A stretch of DNA of 20,737 nucleotides. Origin: a virus. A model generated the notes under the pieces. That model was given only the letters and a program-made list of their open reading frames with translations. It did no database searches and was not told the origin of the DNA. The stretch lies in the IMG/VR virus record IMGVR_UViG_3300035212_001990, positions 1 to 20,737 of that record; one strand, 5' to 3'. Every line of letters starts with the position of its first letter. Within the stretch, counting starts at the first letter, position 1. Position numbers and translations under genes: made by a program. Below are positions 1 to 20,590 of this stretch, piece after piece.

Positions 1-1077
1 TTTGAAAAGATTATCGATGGCTCAGCACACTTTAGGTGGTCGCGCGATAAGTCAAACTACTTCTTAGAAAACACTAAGACCAAATCAAAGATATTCTTTA
101 TGGCTGAAAACATAAGCCATGACCCCGAGTTAAATGCTTTCTTAGGACTTGAAACAAACGGAATATACTTTGAGCAAATTGAAGAGTTAAGCAAGAAGTT
201 ATGGAATATCGGCAGCTCGCGTGTTGGCTCCTGGTATATTGATAAAATGCCAACACCTTTGATATTAGCAACATTTAATCCGACTCAAACGTGGATTAAA
301 GATGAAATACACATACCGTATTTAAAGGGCGAGTTAGGTGAGGAGTTTTACTATCAGTTAGCCATGCCAGATGATAATGCATTCGTAACTGATGAGCAGC
401 GTAAAGTTTGGTCACGTATGGATGAGCGTTATCGTAGGCAGTTTATCGGTGGCGATTGGACTAACTTCGATATGGATGGCAATCGTTGGGCATATGCTTA
501 CGATTCGACTAAACACCTTAAGCCCGTTGAACTTAACAAACAACTGCCCATCATACTTAGTTTTGATTTTAACCGTAATCCTATTTGTTGCTCAGTGCTT
601 CAAGTTATGCCGCCATCAACGATAAGAGTTAAAGAAACGATTAAGTTAGCCAATAGCGACATCTACCAACTTTGCGATGTGATTAAGTCTAAGTATGGCA
701 ATGCACTTTACCAAGTAACTGGCGATGCAAGTGGCAAGTCATCGAGTGCATTGGTGCAGGATAACCTCAACTATTACGTTGTTATTCGACAGAAGTTTAA
801 CCTCAGCAACAATCAAATGTTAGTACCAAGCGTTAACCCATCGTTAGAAGACAACCGAATGTTAGTCAACTCATTACTTGCGCGTGGCAATGTAGAACTT
901 GACCCTCAGTTTACTAAGGGATTGCAATTCGATTTAGAAAACGTGGCGGTGCTACCCGATGGCACTATAAAGAAAACAGACCGTAACGATCCGACTCAAC
1001 AAGCCGATGCATTAGACACATTTCGTTATGCTTGTAACACTTATCTAAAAAATTTCATATATTTGTCAAATGTTTAG
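1..1077 (+). CDS. terL: Terminase large subunit, C-terminal part (5' end outside window)
   Basis: This is the motor and nuclease that packages phage DNA into the prohead through the portal. The frame is open from base 1, so the gene is cut by the window edge and the ATG at 100 is internal. The Walker A and B motifs must lie upstream. Numbering from the Met at 100, I see 'LATFNPTQTW' (55-64), which fits the ATPase coupling motif. A 'YRRQFIGGDW' stretch (111-120) is typical of the linker. The RNase H-like nuclease shows 'LSFDFN' (153-158), 'TGDASG' (207-212) and 'ADALDTFRY' (302-310), which supply the expected acidic residues. The stop overlaps the next gene by 8 bases. No small terminase is visible; it may lie upstream. 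The family call is strong even though the protein is partial. Confidence 0.93.
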   Translation, partial: FEKIIDGSAHFRWSRDKSNYFLENTKTKSKIFFMAENISHDPELNAFLGLETNGIYFEQIEELSKKLWNIGSSRVGSWYIDKMPTPLILATFNPTQTWIKDEIHIPYLKGELGEEFYYQLAMPDDNAFVTDEQRKVWSRMDERYRRQFIGGDWTNFDMDGNRWAYAYDSTKHLKPVELNKQLPIILSFDFNRNPICCSVLQVMPPSTIRVKETIKLANSDIYQLCDVIKSKYGNALYQVTGDASGKSSSALVQDNLNYYVVIRQKFNLSNNQMLVPSVNPSLEDNRMLVNSLLARGNVELDPQFTKGLQFDLENVAVLPDGTIKKTDRNDPTQQADALDTFRYACNTYLKNFIYLSNV

Positions 1078-1690
1078 CGTAATAATTCCAACAATGTGGA
1101 AATCTCCACGCATCACACAACTGTTAACCGATTTGTGCAACTGCGAATTAGTAGGCGAGGTTATCATTATTGATAACAACCCGAGCGAAAGTCAACCGTT
1201 GCCACTTAACGCTAAGTATGACATACACTTAATGGCTGAAAATATTTATGTAAATCCTGCATGGAATTACGGAGTTGAACGTTCCCAATTTGAGAACATA
1301 TTAATTTGCAATGATGACATTAACTTTAACCCATCGTTCTTAGGCATCTATGATGACAGTTTGCAGCACGTTGGCATTATCGGAATGGCATTTGAGAACT
1401 ACCAACTAAAGGCAGACCATAACATCCACCTCAAACCGATGAAAGAACGCCCTTATGGATGGGGCTGTTTGATGTTAATTCACAAATCAAAGTACACACC
1501 GATACCCGATGATTTACTTATTGCAAACGGTGATGATTGGTTAGCACAACACGCGACACCGTTTGTATTGCATGGCTTATCGATTCAATCCGAGATTAGC
1601 ACCACATCGAGAATGGAGGAGTTTGGAATGATACAACACACCGATAACGAAACTTATAAACTAAAATATGGCACACCAAGAACAAGTTGA
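1070..1690 (+). CDS. Glycosyltransferase, GT2-like (GT-A fold)
   Basis: It probably transfers a sugar from a nucleotide-sugar to an unknown acceptor. The 206-residue protein opens with 'FSVIIPTMW' and then 'VIIIDNNPSE' (31-40), the nucleotide-binding strand pattern of GT2 enzymes. 'NPAWNYGV' (62-69) and 'ILICNDDINF' (77-86) follow; the latter, with D82 and D83, is the likely DxD-equivalent metal site. 'YGWGCLMLIHK' (129-139) and 'GDDW' (154-157) fit the acceptor and catalytic-base region. It is shorter than many cellular GT2 proteins, so it is close to a bare catalytic domain with no membrane segment. The start overlaps terL by 8 bases and the end overlaps the methyltransferase by 23, so the three are probably co-transcribed. 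Family call is good; donor and acceptor are unknown. Confidence 0.82.
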   Translation: MFSVIIPTMWKSPRITQLLTDLCNCELVGEVIIIDNNPSESQPLPLNAKYDIHLMAENIYVNPAWNYGVERSQFENILICNDDINFNPSFLGIYDDSLQHVGIIGMAFENYQLKADHNIHLKPMKERPYGWGCLMLIHKSKYTPIPDDLLIANGDDWLAQHATPFVLHGLSIQSEISTTSRMEEFGMIQHTDNETYKLKYGTPRTS

Positions 1691-2204: not shown

Positions 2205-2564
2205 ATGGCTATACTTAATTGTTTAACAAGCTACACTCAAGATGTAAGCGGATGTGCTGAAACATTAGAATTCAGTTCCCCCACGTTCACAAACGATACT
2301 AACTACGTTGTAAAATTTACGTATGCAAATGGATGGGTGCTTAAACGCGAAGCAACAAGCGGCCTATACGATGCAGTAATTGAAATAAACAATAACGGAT
2401 TCTGGAACATTGGAACGGGCCCCGTAAAAGTTGAAATACTTAATGGCTGCGATGTCACAAATTTTGATATTTGTGGGACAGTTTATTCATCAATTACACT
2501 TAACTTCATAAACATAACTGAAGATGATACTATTGCCATTATCCCTTGTCCTTGCCCTGAATAG
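2205..2564 (+). CDS. Hypothetical beta-rich, Cys-containing protein (possible virion component)
   Basis: I do not recognise this 119-residue protein. It begins MAILNC and is rich in Asn, Thr, Val, Ile and aromatic residues in alternating patterns, which suggests an all-beta fold. It has no clear signal peptide. Cysteines occur at 6, 17, 80 and 89 and in the ending 'IIPCPCPE'. It starts three bases after the methyltransferase stop and its last 41 bases overlap the next gene. The composition resembles the minor tail proteins at 6037-9134, so a small structural role is possible, but this is inference from composition and location only. Confidence 0.6.
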   Translation: MAILNCLTSYTQDVSGCAETLEFSSPTFTNDTNYVVKFTYANGWVLKREATSGLYDAVIEINNNGFWNIGTGPVKVEILNGCDVTNFDICGTVYSSITLNFINITEDDTIAIIPCPCPE

Positions 2565-2814
2565 CCTATGTTGTTTAGGTGTTCACTGCCTAACGCGTGA
2601 GGATATGTTATTTGAGAAAGCAGCAAACTATATTCGACATTATGTTGGTGAATTTTGGAGCAAACCATTGTTCGATTGCCCGCCATGTATGGCATCGGTA
2701 TGGGGTTTAATCGGTTGGTTATATTTTGTAACCGACTTGCATTTGATACCTTACTTACTTATACTATGTGGATTAAACGCGTTAACATCTAAAATGTTTT
2801 ATTATGGAGATTGA
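2524..2814 (+). CDS. Small membrane protein with CPPC motif, unknown function
   Basis: This is a 96-residue protein with an N-terminal hydrophobic stretch (about 1-21). A second hydrophobic region spans about 58-88, with a short break near the central 'VTDLHL', so it likely spans the membrane two or three times. Between them is the motif 'FDCPPCMASVWG' (50-61). A Cys-x-x-Cys followed by Trp-Gly at the membrane edge recalls small DUF1360-like membrane proteins, but I cannot confirm that family. The chosen ATG overlaps the previous gene by 41 bases. A later ATG at 2605 would remove the first hydrophobic segment. A membrane protein in a late phage operon could be a holin, an exclusion factor or a membrane-anchored assembly factor; none is demonstrated. 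Confidence 0.55.
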   Translation: MILLPLSLVLALNSLCCLGVHCLTREDMLFEKAANYIRHYVGEFWSKPLFDCPPCMASVWGLIGWLYFVTDLHLIPYLLILCGLNALTSKMFYYGD

Positions 2815-3004
2815 AGATGCACATAAGTTTCTGTTATCACTCGGCTACACTTACACTGGTCAAACATGCGGATGTGGAGGCAGTTCAAAGAAACGCACTT
2901 ACAATAAAACAGATAGTAAAATTATAATTAACTTAAGAACGAAACACTATACACATAACAATGAACTTCCGAAACCTATTCAAGAACTCGCCACCAGTTT
3001 ATAA
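2804..3004 (+). CDS. Small CGCGG-motif protein, unknown function
   Basis: This 66-residue protein is of unknown function. After a short helical start it has 'TCGCGGSSKKRTY' (21-33), a Cys-Gly cluster followed by basic residues. A Lys/Arg/His-rich segment follows, with 'IIINLRTKHYTH' near 40-51. The cluster could bind a metal, but with only two cysteines it would need a partner or dimer. The gene overlaps the membrane protein by 11 bases and the tail chaperone by 44 bases. A related-looking Cys-Gly-Gly end occurs in the 18-codon gene at 13000-13056. The long overlaps on both sides keep confidence moderate. Confidence 0.5.
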   Translation: MEIEDAHKFLLSLGYTYTGQTCGCGGSSKKRTYNKTDSKIIINLRTKHYTHNNELPKPIQELATSL

Positions 3005-3551
3005 ATCCGAATTCCCGCTTGAATTCGCGTTCAAGTGTGGAGGCGTTGACTACTTTGAGTTTGTCGATAAGAACAACCTACCTTATGAGCGTGGGTTAGA
3101 AGCGTTGACATTTTACCAAGAAATGCAGAACGGAGTTACAAACGATTACATCAAGAATTACAACGCGGCAATGAGCAAGTTGTTAAGTGATCCAAAGAAA
3201 ATCAACCTCAACGAAATCATTAAACTACAAATGCGATTCGAGGAGCGTTGTAACTTCATTATAAGCAAGGATATTATCTACAAGGTTGCTTCGGTTGCGT
3301 TTGTGGATAAAAGTGAGCCATTGACACGTTATGACTTTAAGGCTAACGAAAAAAAGATTAAGAACTGGAAAGAGAATGCAGGCGATAGTTTTTTTTTGTC
3401 AATGCCAATAAAGAAATTAGTTCCGTTTTTAGCGAAGTCAGGCGACACTTCCCTGACGTATTTAGCGATAGTGGAAAAAGTAGAGCAGATTCAACGGGAT
3501 ATAGTTTCGTTACAGACATTAGGGATGGAATTGCAAGCAGAGAAAGATTAA
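2961..3551 (+). CDS. Tail assembly chaperone, short (unshifted) form, gpG-like
   Basis: This gene sits directly before the tape measure, the position of the tail assembly chaperone that coats the tape measure during tail assembly. The 196-residue product is rich in charged residues and predicted helix. It has 'GGVDYFEF' (27-34) near the N terminus and a helical C-terminal region ending 'GMELQAEKD'. Sequence similarity to lambda gpG is not obvious by eye; the call rests on position, size and the frameshift arrangement. A run of nine T at 3389-3397 lies in frame as TTT TTT TTG, and the -1 frame is open from the T run to 3667. The start overlaps the upstream small gene by 44 bases. Confidence 0.72.
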   Translation: MNFRNLFKNSPPVYKSEFPLEFAFKCGGVDYFEFVDKNNLPYERGLEALTFYQEMQNGVTNDYIKNYNAAMSKLLSDPKKINLNEIIKLQMRFEERCNFIISKDIIYKVASVAFVDKSEPLTRYDFKANEKKIKNWKENAGDSFFLSMPIKKLVPFLAKSGDTSLTYLAIVEKVEQIQRDIVSLQTLGMELQAEKD

Positions 3552-3670
3552 AGATTACCGTATTAAAATATTTACCCGCGAATTATCAAATTAATTTACT
3601 AAATTTGTGGGATTTCTTTTTCTTTGCTAATGAGGCAAAGAAGCCACAACCAAAAACGCCTAAAAAGTAA
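2961..3670 (+). CDS. Tail assembly chaperone, long form by -1 frameshift, gpGT-like
   Basis: A -1 shift at the T run would read 145 codons in the first frame and then 91 in the -1 frame, giving a product of about 236 residues that ends at TAA 3668-3670. The -1 frame has a TAG at 3386-3388 immediately before the T run and no stop from there to 3667. The extension beyond the normal stop at 3551 is about 40 residues. It looks like real protein, with 'LKYLPANYQINLLNLWDFF' followed by a Lys/Pro-rich end. It also fills the otherwise unexplained 125-base gap before the tape measure. In lambda and many other siphoviruses and myoviruses the chaperone gene makes both forms by -1 frameshifting, the long form contacting the tape measure and tail tube. 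Frameshifting here is inferred, not shown. Confidence 0.68.
3389..3398 (+). promoter_or_regulatory. Slippery sequence for -1 frameshift (T9 run)
   Basis: The run TTTTTTTTTG holds two overlapping ideal X XXY YYZ heptamers in the chaperone reading frame: T TTT TTT (3389-3395) and T TTT TTG (3392-3398). Both tRNAs could re-pair after slipping back one base. The last stop of the -1 frame ends at 3388, the base before the run. RNA polymerase slippage on nine T could give the same result. Confidence 0.65.
3425..3457 (+). promoter_or_regulatory. Second possible slip heptamer with downstream stem-loop
   Basis: G TTT TTA (3425-3431) is in frame with the chaperone. Five bases later a 6-bp stem begins, GTCAGG (3437-3442) pairing with CCTGAC (3452-3457) around a 9-base loop. 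The spacing fits a frameshift stimulator. The heptamer is poorer than the T run because the P-site tRNA would mismatch after slipping. It could be a secondary site or chance. Confidence 0.28.
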
Positions 3671-3676
3671 TGGCAG

Positions 3677-6040
3677 TTGGAAAATGTAATAATTAAATTC
3701 GTTGCAGACACATCAGGACTTGAGCCTGCGATTAAGCAACTTGAATTACTTGGTAAGATAAGCAAAGATGATGCGGCCGCGTTTGCGCAAGTTAACAATG
3801 AGCAAAAGGAATTCATTCAAAACTTAAATAAATCCACAACCGAAATGGGCAAGTTGTCCAACGAAGTCGATGGGCTTATGGCCGAGATTCAAGCGGGAGT
3901 GATGGAGGGATTTGCAGACCATTTAGCTGAGGTAACAAAAGAAACCAAGCAAGCAGGAACGGGTTTCAAGTCAATGAAGCAAGAGTTGAAAGAATTAAAA
4001 GCTCAGATTGCAAGTGGGTCATTAGGCGAAAAGGAATTAAGAGAAGCCACAAAACGCGCTGCAGAGTTAACCGATACTATTGGCGATGTCAACGATAAGG
4101 TTAAGGCATTAGCGAGCGACACAAAGCGAATTGATGCGGTTGTAACTGCGTTTAGAGGAATAGCCGCTGCGGCTTCGGTTGCTGCGGGTGCTGCAACATT
4201 GTTTGGAAGTGAGAACGAAAAGTTAACTAAAACATTAGCGCAAGCTCAGGGCGCGATGGCATTGTTGCAAGGTGTCCAAGAGTTAGCGAATATAGCCACA
4301 ACTGAGGGCGCATTGAGAACAATGGTGTTGGATGGGGCGCAAAAAACCGCTGCGGTTAGTGCCAGGTTAATGGGTACAAGTATAGCAGGAGCAACTGCGG
4401 TTGCAACTGCAGGAGTTAGCTTGTTAGTTATTGGTTTGGTTGCGCTTGTTTCTTATCTAAATGATACAGCAGATGATGGTGTAGAAAACTTCAATAAAAA
4501 AATAGCTGAAATAGGTAGAGATGAGGGCAGCCTTGCAGTGATAAAAACAAGAGTTGAGTTAATTCGTAAAGGATTATCCGATGAAACAAAAATGCGTGTA
4601 GATGCTATAATTTCAAGGAATAAATCTCAAATGCAGTTTGAAAGAGAAATGCGTAAAGATATAAAAACACTTGATGATGAATTTAATGCATTAGACATTA
4701 GTGATCAAATTAGAACAAATAAAACATATCAAGCCGAACGTTTAAGAATATACAACCAATATGTTAAAGATTTTAAACTTGCAGAAAAATCTTATAATGA
4801 TGATATAGCAGATATTAATGAGGCCGCAGCCAAAGCTAAATTGCAAAAAGAAAAAGATACAAGTAAAGCAGTTGTAAAAAATAAAAAAGAGGAAGTAGAT
4901 AACACAATAAAAGAGGAAGAACGCAGATTGCGTGAGGAAATAGCAGCTAATCAATTAGCATTAGAGTCTTCCACATCAATTGATGACCAAGCGTTTTACT
5001 TTAAAAAAATAACTGAATTTAAAAAAGACCAAGTAAGGTTAACTGAAGATTTAACTGATAGTGAATTAATATTAAAATTAGAGCAGTTTGACAAAGAATA
5101 TGATGCATTTGTTAGGATGTTGGTGGATAAAAAATACGCGCAAGATGATTATTACGATGCAGATTTAGAAGCATGGGCAGCGGCAGAACAAGCAAAATTA
5201 GATGCAGCAAAAGAAGCCGCAGATAAGAAATCCGCATATGATAAAGAAAAAATTAAGGCATACACTGACTTAGCTCTATCTTCAGCACAAACCATCTCCG
5301 ACACCATCTTCACAATCAACCAACAAAACAGAGATGCCGAAACCGCATCAATATTAGATTCACTTAGCATGCGTAAAGATGCCGAGTTAAGCAATAAAGA
5401 GCTAACCGATGCACAACGCTTACAGATTGAGGAAAGATACGCACAACAAGAAGCCGAAATCAAAACACGCGCGTGGGAGGCACAAAAACAAGCGGCAATA
5501 GCACAAGCAATAATGAATGGAGCTTTAGCAATTGGTAACATACTTGCAACAGTTCCAGGTGGGCCATTAAGTCCTGCAACAATAGCATCGTTAGCGGCCG
5601 CAGCCATATCAACTGCCGCACAAGTCGCAATCATCGAATCAACACAACCGCCAAAGTTTGCCGATGGTGGTATGGTAGGCGGTCAATTGCATTCAAGTGG
5701 AGGCACATTGATTGAGGCTGAGCGCGGTGAATACGTTGTAAACAGACATGCAGCAGCCGAATATTTACCAGTATTGAAAGCCATTAATGAGGGTGAGCCT
5801 ACATTTGCAAACAATATATTAGCATCATTAGCCACACAGAATTTCGCACTTGCGGCACAATTTCAAACCAAACAAAGTGCAAGTAGTGATGGCATTAACT
5901 ACGATAAGTTAGACCGAATTATGGCAAAGCACAAATCGAATTTAAATGTCAATATTGATGAGCAAGGTTTAACAACATTTTTGCTCAAAGAAAATAGCCG
6001 CGTTGAATTTAGAAACAAAAAAATGAGATACAGAGCATGA
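3677..6040 (+). CDS. Tail tape measure protein
   Basis: This is the longest gene of the window (787 residues); it sets tail length and occupies the tail lumen. The N terminus 'VIIKFVADTSGLEPAIKQL' is typical of tape measures. Residues about 60-160 and 290-510 are long charged helical or coiled-coil regions. Hydrophobic stretches lie at about 161-178, 236-262 and 611-655. Near residue 660 come 'FADGGMVGG' and 'GGTLIEAERGEYVVN', a C-terminal pattern common in these proteins. At about 0.15 nm per residue the tail would be roughly 118 nm. The start is unusual: the frame begins at TTG 3677, while an ATG at 3670 in a TAATGG overlap is out of frame. About 4480-5270 is markedly AT-richer than its flanks. 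The stop overlaps the next start as ATGA. Confidence 0.9.
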   Translation: MENVIIKFVADTSGLEPAIKQLELLGKISKDDAAAFAQVNNEQKEFIQNLNKSTTEMGKLSNEVDGLMAEIQAGVMEGFADHLAEVTKETKQAGTGFKSMKQELKELKAQIASGSLGEKELREATKRAAELTDTIGDVNDKVKALASDTKRIDAVVTAFRGIAAAASVAAGAATLFGSENEKLTKTLAQAQGAMALLQGVQELANIATTEGALRTMVLDGAQKTAAVSARLMGTSIAGATAVATAGVSLLVIGLVALVSYLNDTADDGVENFNKKIAEIGRDEGSLAVIKTRVELIRKGLSDETKMRVDAIISRNKSQMQFEREMRKDIKTLDDEFNALDISDQIRTNKTYQAERLRIYNQYVKDFKLAEKSYNDDIADINEAAAKAKLQKEKDTSKAVVKNKKEEVDNTIKEEERRLREEIAANQLALESSTSIDDQAFYFKKITEFKKDQVRLTEDLTDSELILKLEQFDKEYDAFVRMLVDKKYAQDDYYDADLEAWAAAEQAKLDAAKEAADKKSAYDKEKIKAYTDLALSSAQTISDTIFTINQQNRDAETASILDSLSMRKDAELSNKELTDAQRLQIEERYAQQEAEIKTRAWEAQKQAAIAQAIMNGALAIGNILATVPGGPLSPATIASLAAAAISTAAQVAIIESTQPPKFADGGMVGGQLHSSGGTLIEAERGEYVVNRHAAAEYLPVLKAINEGEPTFANNILASLATQNFALAAQFQTKQSASSDGINYDKLDRIMAKHKSNLNVNIDEQGLTTFLLKENSRVEFRNKKMRYRA

Positions 6041-8241: not shown

Positions 8242-9134
8242 TGGCAGCGATATTAAACATACCTAATAGCTTTGTAACCTTTTACAACCTGGCGAATGAC
8301 TTAGGCATACCCGAGTATGTAACTGATACAGAATGTGGCATTCAAAAGGATTTTTGCTTACCTATTTATGATGTTGGCGATGTGGCTTTTCAAACGCAAA
8401 TAGTATCAAGTGAGGTAATAAGTAGCGTGACAGTTTATAAAGTGCCGACAAGTGGCACTGGTGTAATTTTAAACGACGTAATAACAAGCATTGTGACTAA
8501 TGGAACACAAAGCGGAGTGCCGATTTACAATATTTATTTTTCCTTTGTGTTTTCTGATTTACTTGATAATACTTTCGATGGCGATTGCTTTCAGTTAGCG
8601 TTTGCTTGTGGTATTTCGGAGCCAAGTTTTTTTATATCTAATCAATGCTTTAAAAAGGTTAATGATAAATGCTTAACCACTAAACTTGCATACACAAACA
8701 CATCAAACGCATTTGGTTTTTATTATAGGACTGCGGTTGTTGTTATTAACCCACCTCCTGCACCACCATTGCTTATACCTACAACTAACTATATCCGATT
8801 ACCATTATACTTCAAAGAGCCAAACATTAGCAGCGACAAAACTGTTTATGTTCGACCAGATGGAAGCCGCCAATTATTATCGGCACGATTGGCAAAGCGT
8901 TATAAAGGTTATGTCGATGAGGTGCCCGAGGAAGTGCATCAAAACTTAGTAATTGCATTGAATCACGATGGCATTTACTTCACACCCGAAAACTTTACAA
9001 CTCAAATACAAGCACGATTTGAGGATGAGTATAACAATAATTATCCCGAAATAATGCAGAACGTAAACATTTGGAGCTCAGATTTTACTATCTTTGAAAC
9101 GCCATTTAATAACTTCAATTCAAACTGCGAATGA
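8241..9134 (+). CDS. Minor tail protein with Pro linker, two domains
   Basis: The 297 residues appear to form two domains joined by the linker 'NPPPAPPLLIP' near 169-179. The N-terminal domain is beta-rich and has six cysteines, including 'TECG', 'GDCF' and 'FACG'. The C-terminal domain contains 'VYVRPDGSRQLLSARLAKRY' and 'EEVHQNLVIALNHDG', a mixed helix and strand module. Coupling by one base to the tail-tip gene places it in the tail tip or as an adaptor for fibres. It has no signal peptide or membrane segment. The exact role is not recognisable from the sequence. Confidence 0.55.
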   Translation: MAAILNIPNSFVTFYNLANDLGIPEYVTDTECGIQKDFCLPIYDVGDVAFQTQIVSSEVISSVTVYKVPTSGTGVILNDVITSIVTNGTQSGVPIYNIYFSFVFSDLLDNTFDGDCFQLAFACGISEPSFFISNQCFKKVNDKCLTTKLAYTNTSNAFGFYYRTAVVVINPPPAPPLLIPTTNYIRLPLYFKEPNISSDKTVYVRPDGSRQLLSARLAKRYKGYVDEVPEEVHQNLVIALNHDGIYFTPENFTTQIQARFEDEYNNNYPEIMQNVNIWSSDFTIFETPFNNFNSNCE

Positions 9135-10000
9135 CAACTGGAATACTCTTAATCGGAATCGGCCATAAAAACTATGGGTGCATGGCTGCAAACCTTGCGA
9201 TGTCATTGCGTGCAAACGGTTGTCACTTGCCTATAACATTAGTAACGCAAGCCGATACTATCACGCGTTTAGATGAGGATTACAAAGCATTGTTTACCGA
9301 GATAAAATACATTGAGCCACATTGCTACACACTTGCCGATAACGAAACGTGTTACATCAAAGCAAAGGCGCACATTGATGAGTTAACACCATATGACTAT
9401 ACGTTGTTTATTGATGCGGATGTGATAATGATTAACAACCATTCCATTAATGCAGAGATTGAGAAATTAAAGGGTATTGATTTCGCGGTAAAAAATAGCG
9501 GGTTTAAAAAATATGATAGTGATGAGATTACTGCCGATTCAAAGCAATGGGCTAACTTATTAGAAGTAAAAGAGGCGTTTGGATTCACAACTGAAAAGAT
9601 TTGGAATGTGCATTCCGAGTTTATATGGTGGAAAAAAGGCCATCCTTTGTTTGCAAAGTGGGTGGAAAATTTTGAGAACATACGTGTAAAAAACATTGAG
9701 TTTGCAGGATGCATACCCGATGAGTTACCGCTATGGATTGCAATGTGCCAATTAGGTGTTGACTGCCACCAAGAAATGTATCATCCTACTTTTTGGCCAA
9801 TGGATTCAACTAAAACAATGCGATTAAAAGACTTAACAGATGACTATTGTGGCATATCTATTGGAGGTAACAGAATAAGTGAAGTGCAATTAACAATCTA
9901 TAACAACCTTGTGCAAATTCATGCATTAAGAATGAATATGCGATATAAATTTTTACAACAGCCTAAAAGAAGATGGGCTCCAGAACGCCATACTTATTAA
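9131..10000 (+). CDS. Glycosyltransferase, DxD type (GT8-like, GT-A fold)
   Basis: This 289-residue enzyme is predicted to transfer a sugar from a nucleotide-sugar. It starts 'GILLIGIGHKNYG', a nucleotide-binding first strand. It then shows 'YIKAKAHIDELTPYDYTLF' followed by 'IDADVIM' (94-100); D95 and D97 form the DxD metal site. The lysine-rich lead into 'FIDADV' is the pattern of glycogenin-like and related GT8 enzymes. Downstream, 'NVHSEFIWWKKGHPLF' (about 159-174) and 'HPTFWPMDS' (about 217-225) fit the acceptor side. It is distinct from the GT2-like enzyme at 1070-1690. It is translationally coupled to the minor tail gene by an ATGA overlap and followed at once by the portal, so it is expressed with virion genes. 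Acceptor unknown: virion protein or host surface glycan are both possible. Confidence 0.75.
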   Translation: MTTGILLIGIGHKNYGCMAANLAMSLRANGCHLPITLVTQADTITRLDEDYKALFTEIKYIEPHCYTLADNETCYIKAKAHIDELTPYDYTLFIDADVIMINNHSINAEIEKLKGIDFAVKNSGFKKYDSDEITADSKQWANLLEVKEAFGFTTEKIWNVHSEFIWWKKGHPLFAKWVENFENIRVKNIEFAGCIPDELPLWIAMCQLGVDCHQEMYHPTFWPMDSTKTMRLKDLTDDYCGISIGGNRISEVQLTIYNNLVQIHALRMNMRYKFLQQPKRRWAPERHTY

Positions 10001-20079: not shown

Positions 20080-20387
20080 ACATAAAATTCAAACAACAAG
20101 GCGATGGTCGCAAATCGTGGATAGTTGACCAAACAGAATTAATCTACGATAGCCCAACAAACAAGTATCATAATGAAATGATGCAAGAAATATTAACAGA
20201 TAAAAACTACTTATCTATCGGTGAGGTATCAATGTGGATTAACGATGTGGAATTTGGTGAAGAGGCGCAAAGTATTATTGATTGGTGGATTACCACTTGC
20301 AAGTTAGTGGCTAATTATGTAGCTTTGAATCCAAATGAAGAAACTGCAGCAGAATTTTTAGCAACTTTACCAACTTATCCTTTATGA
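20076..20387 (+). CDS. Hypothetical acidic protein downstream of tail fibre
   Basis: I place the start at ATG 20076, which overlaps the fibre stop as ATGA. An in-frame ATG at 20022 exists but would overlap the fibre gene by 58 bases. The resulting 103 residues begin MNIKFKQQGDGRKSW and contain 'DSPTNKYHNEMMQEIL', 'WWITTCKLVANYVAL' and end 'AAEFLATLPTYPL'. It is soluble-looking, without signal peptide, and not recognised. Position between fibre and membrane genes would suit a fibre assembly factor or fibre accessory protein. That is inference only. Confidence 0.65.
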   Translation: MNIKFKQQGDGRKSWIVDQTELIYDSPTNKYHNEMMQEILTDKNYLSIGEVSMWINDVEFGEEAQSIIDWWITTCKLVANYVALNPNEETAAEFLATLPTYPL

Positions 20388-20590
20388 TACATTCCCACCA
20401 TCCCGACAATAGCATATTAGTCATCATTACAAGCGTCATCATTCAAGCAGGGGTATGGACATCGGACTGGTTTGGCAATATGAATTTAGTCGGCATCTAT
20501 GACACGATTTATGACTTCGCTAAACTTGGTGCATTAGTAGTTTCGATGTGGGCATCGTATCGTGTTGCAAAAAAAAACAAGAATGAGTAA
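20384..20590 (+). CDS. Small two-segment membrane protein, possible holin
   Basis: This 68-residue protein has two hydrophobic segments (about 10-27 and 46-62), a short polar loop with 'GVWTSDWFGN', and a basic C terminus 'RVAKKNKNE'. That topology and size fit a class II holin, which forms holes in the inner membrane at lysis. It lies after the tail fibre, a common site for lysis genes. No endolysin is visible in the window. It overlaps the previous gene by 4 bases and the next by 8. A run of nine A lies in the basic tail codons (20569-20577). Other small phage membrane proteins look the same, so the holin call is tentative. Confidence 0.55.
   Translation: MIHSHHPDNSILVIITSVIIQAGVWTSDWFGNMNLVGIYDTIYDFAKLGALVVSMWASYRVAKKNKNE

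What the first reader, a model, noticed from the sequence alone, without database searches (positions are those of the whole stretch)
3380..3670. Programmed -1 frameshift in the tail chaperone at a T9 run
The first frame continues through the T run to a stop at 3549-3551. The -1 frame has a TAG that ends at 3388, exactly one base before the T run, and is then open to 3667, giving a sensible extension that fills the gap before the tape measure. Two overlapping in-frame heptamers (T TTT TTT and T TTT TTG) allow perfect re-pairing. A long/short chaperone pair is established for lambda and many other tailed phages; the site here, with a shift point about 50 codons before the short-form stop, is unusual because both frames must stay functional over about 150 bases. 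A nine-T run could also act by transcriptional slippage.
Basis: partly seen in the sequence, partly recalled or inferred. Interest (0 to 1): 0.72.

Follow-up and report, generated by a model that had tools for sequence, protein, structure and literature searches.

The report
Tail-gene frame switch at nine Ts
A gene of an uncultured tailed phage, next to the gene that sets tail length, seems to make two proteins by slipping one base at a run of nine Ts; its relatives keep exactly nine Ts and keep both reading frames intact over the following 150 bases, a long-overlapping variant of a known phage trick.

Summary
In detail: T9 at 3389-3397, short frame to 3549-3551, -1 frame open 3389-3667. It is conserved. 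Of 74 viral contigs found, 70 cover the site, and all 70 keep exactly nine Ts in the same register, including a relative at 27% identity. The overlap after the run is 154 nt in 68 of the 69 sequences that reach the short stop. Substitution rates show purifying selection in both frames there. No ATG, GTG or TTG occurs in the first 50 codons of the -1 frame in 69 of 69, so internal initiation is unlikely. The extension ends at the tape-measure gene. I conclude that this is a programmed frame switch making a short and a long form of a probable tail assembly chaperone, like lambda G/GT and P2 E/E+E'. The two products part 154 nt before the short stop, against 20 nt in P2. The chaperone role rests on position; no family or fold matched. 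Whether ribosome or RNA polymerase slips is unsettled: the run holds two in-frame ribosomal heptamers and is also long enough for polymerase slippage. No expression data exist.

The parts
2961..3551 (+). 0-frame gene: short form, 196 aa, probable tail assembly chaperone (gpG-like role)
   Evidence: Open frame. Relatives at 27-100% identity. Sits directly upstream of the tape-measure gene. No match in Pfam, PHROGs or the PDB sequences.
3389..3397 (+). T9 slip site; with the next base it holds the 0-frame heptamers T TTT TTT (3389-3395) and T TTT TTG (3392-3398)
   Evidence: Exactly nine Ts in the same register in 70 of 70 relative contigs covering it.
3398..3551 (+). 154-nt dual-coded overlap: last 50 codons plus stop of the short form, and the same bases read in -1
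   Evidence: Length 154 nt in 68 of 69 sequences that reach the short stop. Purifying selection in both frames.
3389..3667 (+). -1 frame extension, 93 codons, giving a 236-aa fusion when joined at the T9; stop TAA at 3668-3670
   Evidence: Conserved protein; no ATG/GTG/TTG in the first 50 codons after T9 in 69 of 69.
3677..6040 (+). tail tape-measure gene (787 aa from TTG 3677, the first start in its frame); in 29 of 66 sequences with a tabulated spacing the first start is a GTG sharing a base with the extension's stop (TAGTG)
   Evidence: PHROG 3336 'tail length tape measure protein' E 4.7e-9; short matches to tape-measure genes of Dinoroseobacter and Cellulophaga phages; spacing.

Best explanation
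The gene at 2961 makes two proteins with one N-terminus. Most readings give a 196-aa short form; a fraction change into the -1 frame at the T9 run and give a fusion of about 236 aa that ends at the tape-measure gene. The two forms most likely act as a lambda gpG/gpGT-type tail assembly chaperone pair: many short copies coat the tape-measure protein, and a few long copies recruit tail-tube subunits. Shown here: site, conservation, both frames under selection, no start codon in the early -1 frame, position before the tape measure. Inferred: that both proteins are made, their ratio, the chaperone role. The shift is a one-base slip on the T9/U9 run without a detectable RNA stimulator. For the agent my odds are: ribosome alone 0.40 (P2-type slip on U UUU UUG or U UUU UUU), ribosome plus RNA polymerase 0.30, mainly RNA polymerase 0.25, other 0.05.
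For: T9 exact and in register in 70 of 70 contigs that cover it, plus the window, including seven found by search patterns far from the site. The synonymous freedom to lose it is unused: given the amino acids, the chance of T9 is 0.028-0.143 per source in 12 sources, and of T at wobble position 3389 alone 0.18-0.35. Overlap length is 154 nt in 68 of 69. In eight hand-picked sister pairs, changes silent in both frames run at 0.188 and silent changes in the single-coded upstream part at 0.145, but changes that alter only the 0 frame run at 0.031 and only the -1 frame at 0.040. No ATG/GTG/TTG in the first 50 codons of the -1 frame after T9, 69 of 69. The extension ends at the tape-measure gene. 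The extension is recognisable down to 42-46% identity in the most divergent relatives that the search confirmed. P2 uses TTTTTTG in the gene before its tape measure. In Dinoroseobacter phage R5C, whose tape measure matches this one over a short stretch, two genes annotated as tail chaperones lie directly before the tape measure.
Against: No expression data. No Pfam, PHROG, PDB-sequence or fold match names either protein; the extension was tested against Pfam for the window only. The extension model is poor (pLDDT 57.7), so a gpT-like domain is not shown. In Cellulophaga phage phi46:1, the other tape-measure match looked at, the gene directly before the tape measure is an 1,833-nt structural protein, not a chaperone. 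In L224 the last 20 or so residues of the 0-frame tail are not conserved while the -1 frame is. With the mutation rate left free the two constraints are weaker (w0 0.46, w-1 0.58), and for four divergent pairs the -1 constraint is not significant (2dlnL 0.6); the upstream part of those pairs was compared without allowing for indels. The pairs were chosen by eye, not from a tree. The major tail protein was not identified, so 'between major tail protein and tape measure' could not be checked.
Confidence: 0.9

Rival explanations
1. Ribosome only: a P2-like programmed -1 ribosomal frameshift on the in-frame heptamers U UUU UUU / U UUU UUG, low efficiency, without a stimulator.
For: Both heptamers are in the 0-frame register. 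P2 and P2-like phages use TTTTTTG with no downstream hairpin (passages of PMC3091744). SPP1 is said to use UUUUUUC putatively (passages of PMC6316719). The review passages treat tail-chaperone shifts as ribosomal (PMC5009743). No stimulator was found here either.
Against: A P2-type heptamer needs only 3392-3398. The wobble T at 3389 is kept in every lineage though unforced, and needs the second heptamer or a run-length effect to explain it. In E. coli U_UUU_UUU is a weaker site than A_AAA_AAG.
Confidence: 0.4
2. RNA polymerase slippage: the polymerase adds one base at T9, so some mRNAs carry ten Us and are read by normal translation as the fusion; it acts mainly alone (0.25) or beside the ribosome (0.30).
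For: Run length is exactly nine in every contig that covers it, including the wobble T. A run of 9 As or Ts slips efficiently in vivo in bacteria, and the Thermus RNA-DNA hybrid is 9-10 bp (passages of PMC5009743). A downstream D/E-F-F-F motif that could hold a longer T run never exceeds eight Ts, 67 of 67. The third frame, into which transcripts with eight or eleven Ts would shift, closes after 3 codons in 64 of 69 and 6 in the other 5.
Against: Runs of nine or more A/T are depleted in coding DNA (A: 6 vs 19.9 expected; T: 2 vs 4.9, 20 of 300 shuffles as low) while shorter runs mostly are not (T7 is: 24 vs 40.3). But noncoding DNA shows the same trend (3 vs 7.2, 14 of 200), so the depletion may be mutational or an assembly effect. 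In the FFFF motif the C bases would also break most ribosomal heptamers (my reading). The early third-frame stop may follow from coding constraint. No paper passage seen records a tail chaperone that uses it (and the passages).
Confidence: 0.55
3. The -1 frame is a separate gene with its own start, overlapping the end of the first gene.
For: Overlapping genes are common in phages (general knowledge); one divergent relative, L224, is open for 67 codons upstream of the run in the -1 frame.
Against: No ATG, GTG or TTG in the first 50 codons of the -1 frame after T9 in 69 of 69, while the conserved protein starts at the run. In the 61 loci the -1 frame is closed 0, 1 or 8 codons before the run.
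Confidence: 0.02
4. Sequencing error or decayed gene: one frame is not real.
For: Homopolymers are error-prone (general knowledge).
Against: Same nine Ts in 70 other contigs, both frames open and constrained.
Confidence: 0.01

Closest known systems
Phage P2 gpE / gpE+E' (-1 shift at TTTTTTG in the FETUD tail operon)
   Same: T TTT TTG heptamer, -1 direction, gene directly before the tape measure (P2 gene T), no stem-loop; similar local peptide (P2 GFLS, here SFFLS).
   Different: P2 shifts 20 nt before the short stop (19685 vs 19705) with T6G; here T9 and a 154-nt overlap with a constrained short-form tail. The phage collection, which holds P2, gave no sequence match.
Phage lambda gpG / gpGT
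   Same: Short and long form sharing an N-terminus, just before the tape-measure gene, long form by -1 shift (passages).
   Different: The lambda frames can overlap by at most 64 nt; the GGGAAAG string near the end of G is the slip site from my own knowledge. No sequence match here.
Bacterial genes that use polymerase slippage (Thermus dnaX, Shigella mxiE)
   Same: A homopolymer run in the gene (nine bases in dnaX; a run of Us in mxiE) yields two products (two sections of PMC1088944 and passages of PMC5009743).
   Different: Reported there from mRNA and protein work; not testable here. This run also holds ribosomal heptamers.

Membership tests
lambda G/GT-type tail assembly chaperone pair | gene lies directly upstream of the tape-measure gene | tested here: met
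   Extension stop 3668-3670, tape-measure frame from 3677; tape-measure match tested for the window only. A long open frame follows the extension in the 66 sequences (window included) with a tabulated spacing (first start -4 to +9 nt from the stop, +110 in L246; two were too short).
lambda G/GT-type tail assembly chaperone pair | two conserved reading frames joined by a -1 change, sharing the N-terminus | tested here: met
   (sequence evidence only; products not seen).
lambda G/GT-type tail assembly chaperone pair | lies between the major tail protein and the tape measure | tested here: inconclusive
   Only small unassigned ORFs precede it (2205-3004); the major tail protein was not identified.
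lambda G/GT-type tail assembly chaperone pair | sequence or fold of known tail chaperones | tested here: inconclusive
   No Pfam/PHROG hit for the window protein; best PHROG hit among 23 relatives E 0.0071 to an unnamed family; viral fold hits weak, best unnamed at E 0.013, one 'Tail assembly chaperone' at E 0.28; nothing significant in the PDB.
lambda G/GT-type tail assembly chaperone pair | binds tape measure and tail-tube protein, absent from virions | not testable with these tools
   needs proteins
P2-type -1 ribosomal frameshift site | in-frame T TTT TTG heptamer | tested here: met
   69 of 71 sequences (70 contigs plus the window) have T9G; L096 and L097 have T9A, giving T TTT TTA.
P2-type -1 ribosomal frameshift site | shift just before the short-form stop | tested here: not met
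   154 nt here versus 20 nt in P2.
programmed transcriptional slippage | conserved run of nine A/T with conserved layout of the two frames | tested here: met
   criterion as in the Results of PMC1088944.
programmed transcriptional slippage | mRNA population with extra or missing bases | not testable with these tools
   needs cDNA reads

The most novel reading that the evidence does not exclude
A tail chaperone pair made wholly or largely by RNA polymerase slippage on an invariant T9 run, with a 'forked' design in which both the short-form tail (50 codons) and the long-form tail are functional and encoded by the same 154 bases. One search found four papers (three listed) holding both 'tail assembly chaperone' and 'transcriptional slippage'; the passages I saw of the three report no such case, but I did not read them whole.
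Probability: 0.4. Interest if true: 0.75.

Novelty: new variant of a known kind. Interest (0 to 1): 0.52.

Why it matters
It extends the tail-chaperone frame switch to an uncultured phage lineage whose chaperone gene has no match in the phage or GTDB genome collections searched. It is a case where the short form keeps its own constrained C-terminal tail instead of ending soon after the slip site. The long conserved overlap and the invariant nine-base run make 'ribosome or polymerase?' directly testable in this gene class.

Tried and rejected
Downstream RNA stimulator: 10 sequences folded over 111 nt gave z -0.94 to 1.33, and an alignment of 17 gave a consensus energy of -0.27 kcal/mol with 0 of 6 pairs changed on both sides; rejected as a feature. 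A TCAGG/CCTGA hairpin about 40 nt downstream is seen in the window and some relatives but is broken in others. Shine-Dalgarno-like GGNGAT before the run is not shared by all lineages.

Nine-base-run avoidance as proof of polymerase slippage: seen in coding DNA (319,392 coding bases from 12 sources, 12 ORFs taken as the chaperone excluded by a motif rule) but also, as a trend, in noncoding DNA (20,481 bases), so I do not use it as proof. The smaller earlier count is superseded.

Second T9 in coding DNA: T9A in a terminase-like gene (named by eye) of contig G021; its -1 frame is open for 15 codons only, so not a second programmed switch. A T9 in a G012 ORF was listed, but looked in the wrong piece and did not find it; not pursued. 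Genome prophages: none in two GTDB scans. Fold searches gave nothing significant; the list covers mainly residues 14-160. Nonlabens phage P12024S was looked at because of a weak viral fold hit (which of its genes that hit is was not worked out); the two genes examined before the long ORF gp49 showed no comparable run or overlap. A motif pattern over the loci found nothing, probably because I wrote it wrongly, so it says nothing. Terminase and capsid searches placed the phage only loosely: weak terminase matches to a Bacteroides and two Stenotrophomonas phages, none for the capsid; the host is unknown.

Full report
What is there. The window is a virus record of 20,737 bases. A gene runs from ATG 2961 to TAA 3549-3551 (196 aa). 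Inside it, at 3389-3397, is a run of nine Ts, read in the 0 frame as AGT TTT TTT TTG. In the -1 frame a TAG ends at 3388 and the frame is then open for 93 codons to 3667 (stop TAA 3668-3670). The tape-measure gene follows from TTG 3677: its best named PHROG match is a tail length tape measure family, E 4.7e-9, and it has short matches to tape-measure genes of Dinoroseobacter and Cellulophaga phages. Without the extension, the 125 bases between the two genes would be uncoded on this strand.

Relatives. The 0-frame protein found 50 loci, the extension 63, and an alignment of the 0 frame, whose search patterns lie far from the run, 71 loci including seven new contigs at 27-57% identity. A later extension search added one more contig, L279. 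Together these are 74 contigs. Four do not reach the run: those of L083/L050, L113, L048 and L049. The 70 that cover it are 61, seven (L223-L227, L244, L246) and two (L045, L279). All 70 have exactly nine Ts in the same register; 68 have G after the run and two (L096, L097) have A. Only stretches confirmed by tblastn were examined, and one of six patterns was the FFF peptide itself (which allows TTC). The sequences are not independent: 53 of 69 are distinct over 210 nt, and by eye, without a tree, they form about eight divergent lineages. The chaperone gene has no match in the phage collection (none; 21, 22 only chance-level hits) or in two GTDB genome scans; the tools say that records very near the window may be left out.

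More than chance. Using each source's codon usage, the chance of the T9 given its amino acids is 0.028-0.143, and of a T at the wobble position 3389 alone 0.18-0.35, in 12 sources. With the short-form protein fixed and codons redrawn from the window's usage, the -1 frame stays open over the overlap with probability 0.0001-0.049 in seven sources; with the -1 protein fixed, the 0 frame stays open with probability 0.015-0.47. So the open -1 frame is the more remarkable of the two.

Both frames are constrained. From the base after the run to the end of the short stop the length is 154 nt in 67 of 67 and in L279; L246 is longer (74 codons). In eight hand-picked sister pairs the substitution rate per opportunity was: single-coded upstream part, silent 0.145 and altering 0.012; overlap, silent in both 0.188, altering only the 0 frame 0.031, only the -1 frame 0.040, both 0.023; single-coded part of the extension, silent 0.089 and altering 0.004. 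With the mutation rate left free, the fit gave w0 0.46 and w-1 0.58 (2dlnL 15.1 and 6.9). A second set of seven pairs, which shares sequences with the first, gave w0 0.46 and w-1 0.66 (16.6 and 4.5). In four divergent pairs the effect was weak (w0 0.69, w-1 0.87; 4.7 and 0.6). One relative, L224, keeps the extension but not the last 20 or so residues of the short form. Internal initiation is unlikely: no ATG, GTG or TTG within 50 codons after the run in 69 of 69. In 29 of 66 sequences with a tabulated spacing the first start of the next long frame is a GTG sharing a base with the extension's TAG; in 28, including the window, it lies 6 nt after the stop; nine others range from -4 to +110; two more (L069, L073) were too short to judge.

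What it does. By position, and by the two-product layout, the best reading is a tail assembly chaperone pair. Passages of a review (PMC5009743) describe lambda gpG binding the tape measure and the T part of gpGT binding the tail-tube subunit. The identity is inferred: no family, solved-structure or fold match supports it. Of the two cultured phages whose tape measure matches here and whose gene order I looked at, one has two annotated tail chaperones directly before the tape measure (Dinoroseobacter phage R5C) and the other does not (Cellulophaga phage phi46:1). The short form was modelled at pLDDT 75.8 and pTM 0.61: two strands, then helices, ending in a C-terminal helix drawn over 162-195, of which 162-168 has pLDDT under 50. 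The extension model is too poor to use (57.7).

How the frame changes. Two machines can slip here. For the ribosome, the run holds U UUU UUU and U UUU UUG in register; P2-like phages use TTTTTTG without a hairpin, and no structure is detectable here. For RNA polymerase, the same review states that slippage is efficient in vivo at runs of nine As or Ts. Favouring a run-length effect: the exact nine, the kept wobble T, and a nearby D/E-F-F-F motif that never exceeds eight Ts in 67 of 67. Following the randomisation described in PMC1088944 (Results section), coding DNA of 12 sources avoids A runs of nine or more (6 seen, 19.9 expected, 0 of 300 shuffles as low); T runs of nine or more are 2 against 4.9 (20 of 300); A runs of 6-8 and T runs of 6 and 8 are not depleted, T7 is (24 against 40.3). 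But noncoding DNA shows the same trend (3 against 7.2, 14 of 200), so this may not be about transcription. I give ribosome alone 0.40, both 0.30, mainly polymerase 0.25, other 0.05.

Compared with known systems. In four reference phages the -1 frame limits the overlap to at most 37 nt (P2), 64 (lambda), 52 (HK97) and 151 (Bxb1), against 163 by the same measure in the window; P2's annotated site lies 20 nt before the short stop. Bxb1 by this measure could have as long an overlap; that its site lies near the end is my reading of a G5AAG string there, not an annotation. I did not survey further phages. Here the short and long forms part 154 nt before the short stop, each with its own conserved tail, which makes it a new variant of a known kind.

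Literature seen. Passages: PMC5009743, PMC10885494, PMC2853527, PMC3711429 (two tail-chaperone sites measured at 6 and 7%), PMC3091744, PMC6316719. Outline and two sections: PMC1088944. Searches for a Flavobacterium-phage frameshift, for dual coding in tail assembly genes and for slippage in Flavobacterium held no paper with all terms; the Bacteroidetes-phage search listed two papers, of which I saw passages of one. Xu et al. 2004 and Christie et al. 2002 were not seen; I know them through citations.

Noticed in passing
window 3400-3411 and the same place in relatives: The third reading frame closes after 3 codons in 64 of 69 sequences and after 6 in the other 5; in the alignment the early stop sits at one position, TAA in most and TGA in L098 and L279. 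It could limit products of other slips, or follow from coding constraint.
   Followed up: partly
L057 (contig 3300042307_000526), start of the 0-frame gene: This near relative has a different, longer N-terminal region (216 codons before the site instead of 151) while the rest is nearly unchanged; possibly a recombinant or assembly join.
   Followed up: no
12 phage sources: A/T runs of nine or more are rarer than expected in coding DNA, with the same trend in noncoding DNA, while most shorter runs are not; cause unknown (mutation, selection or assembly).
   Followed up: partly
G021 (L274), minus strand: A second T9 (followed by A) lies inside a terminase-like gene with the same FFL reading but no long open -1 frame.
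   Followed up: yes
window 1070-1690, 1668-2201 and 9131-10000: Between structural genes lie ORFs that look by eye like glycosyltransferases and a methyltransferase; not tested.
   Followed up: no
window 20569-20577: A run of nine As near the end of a 68-aa ORF (20384-20590), the only other nine-base A or T run in the window.
   Followed up: no
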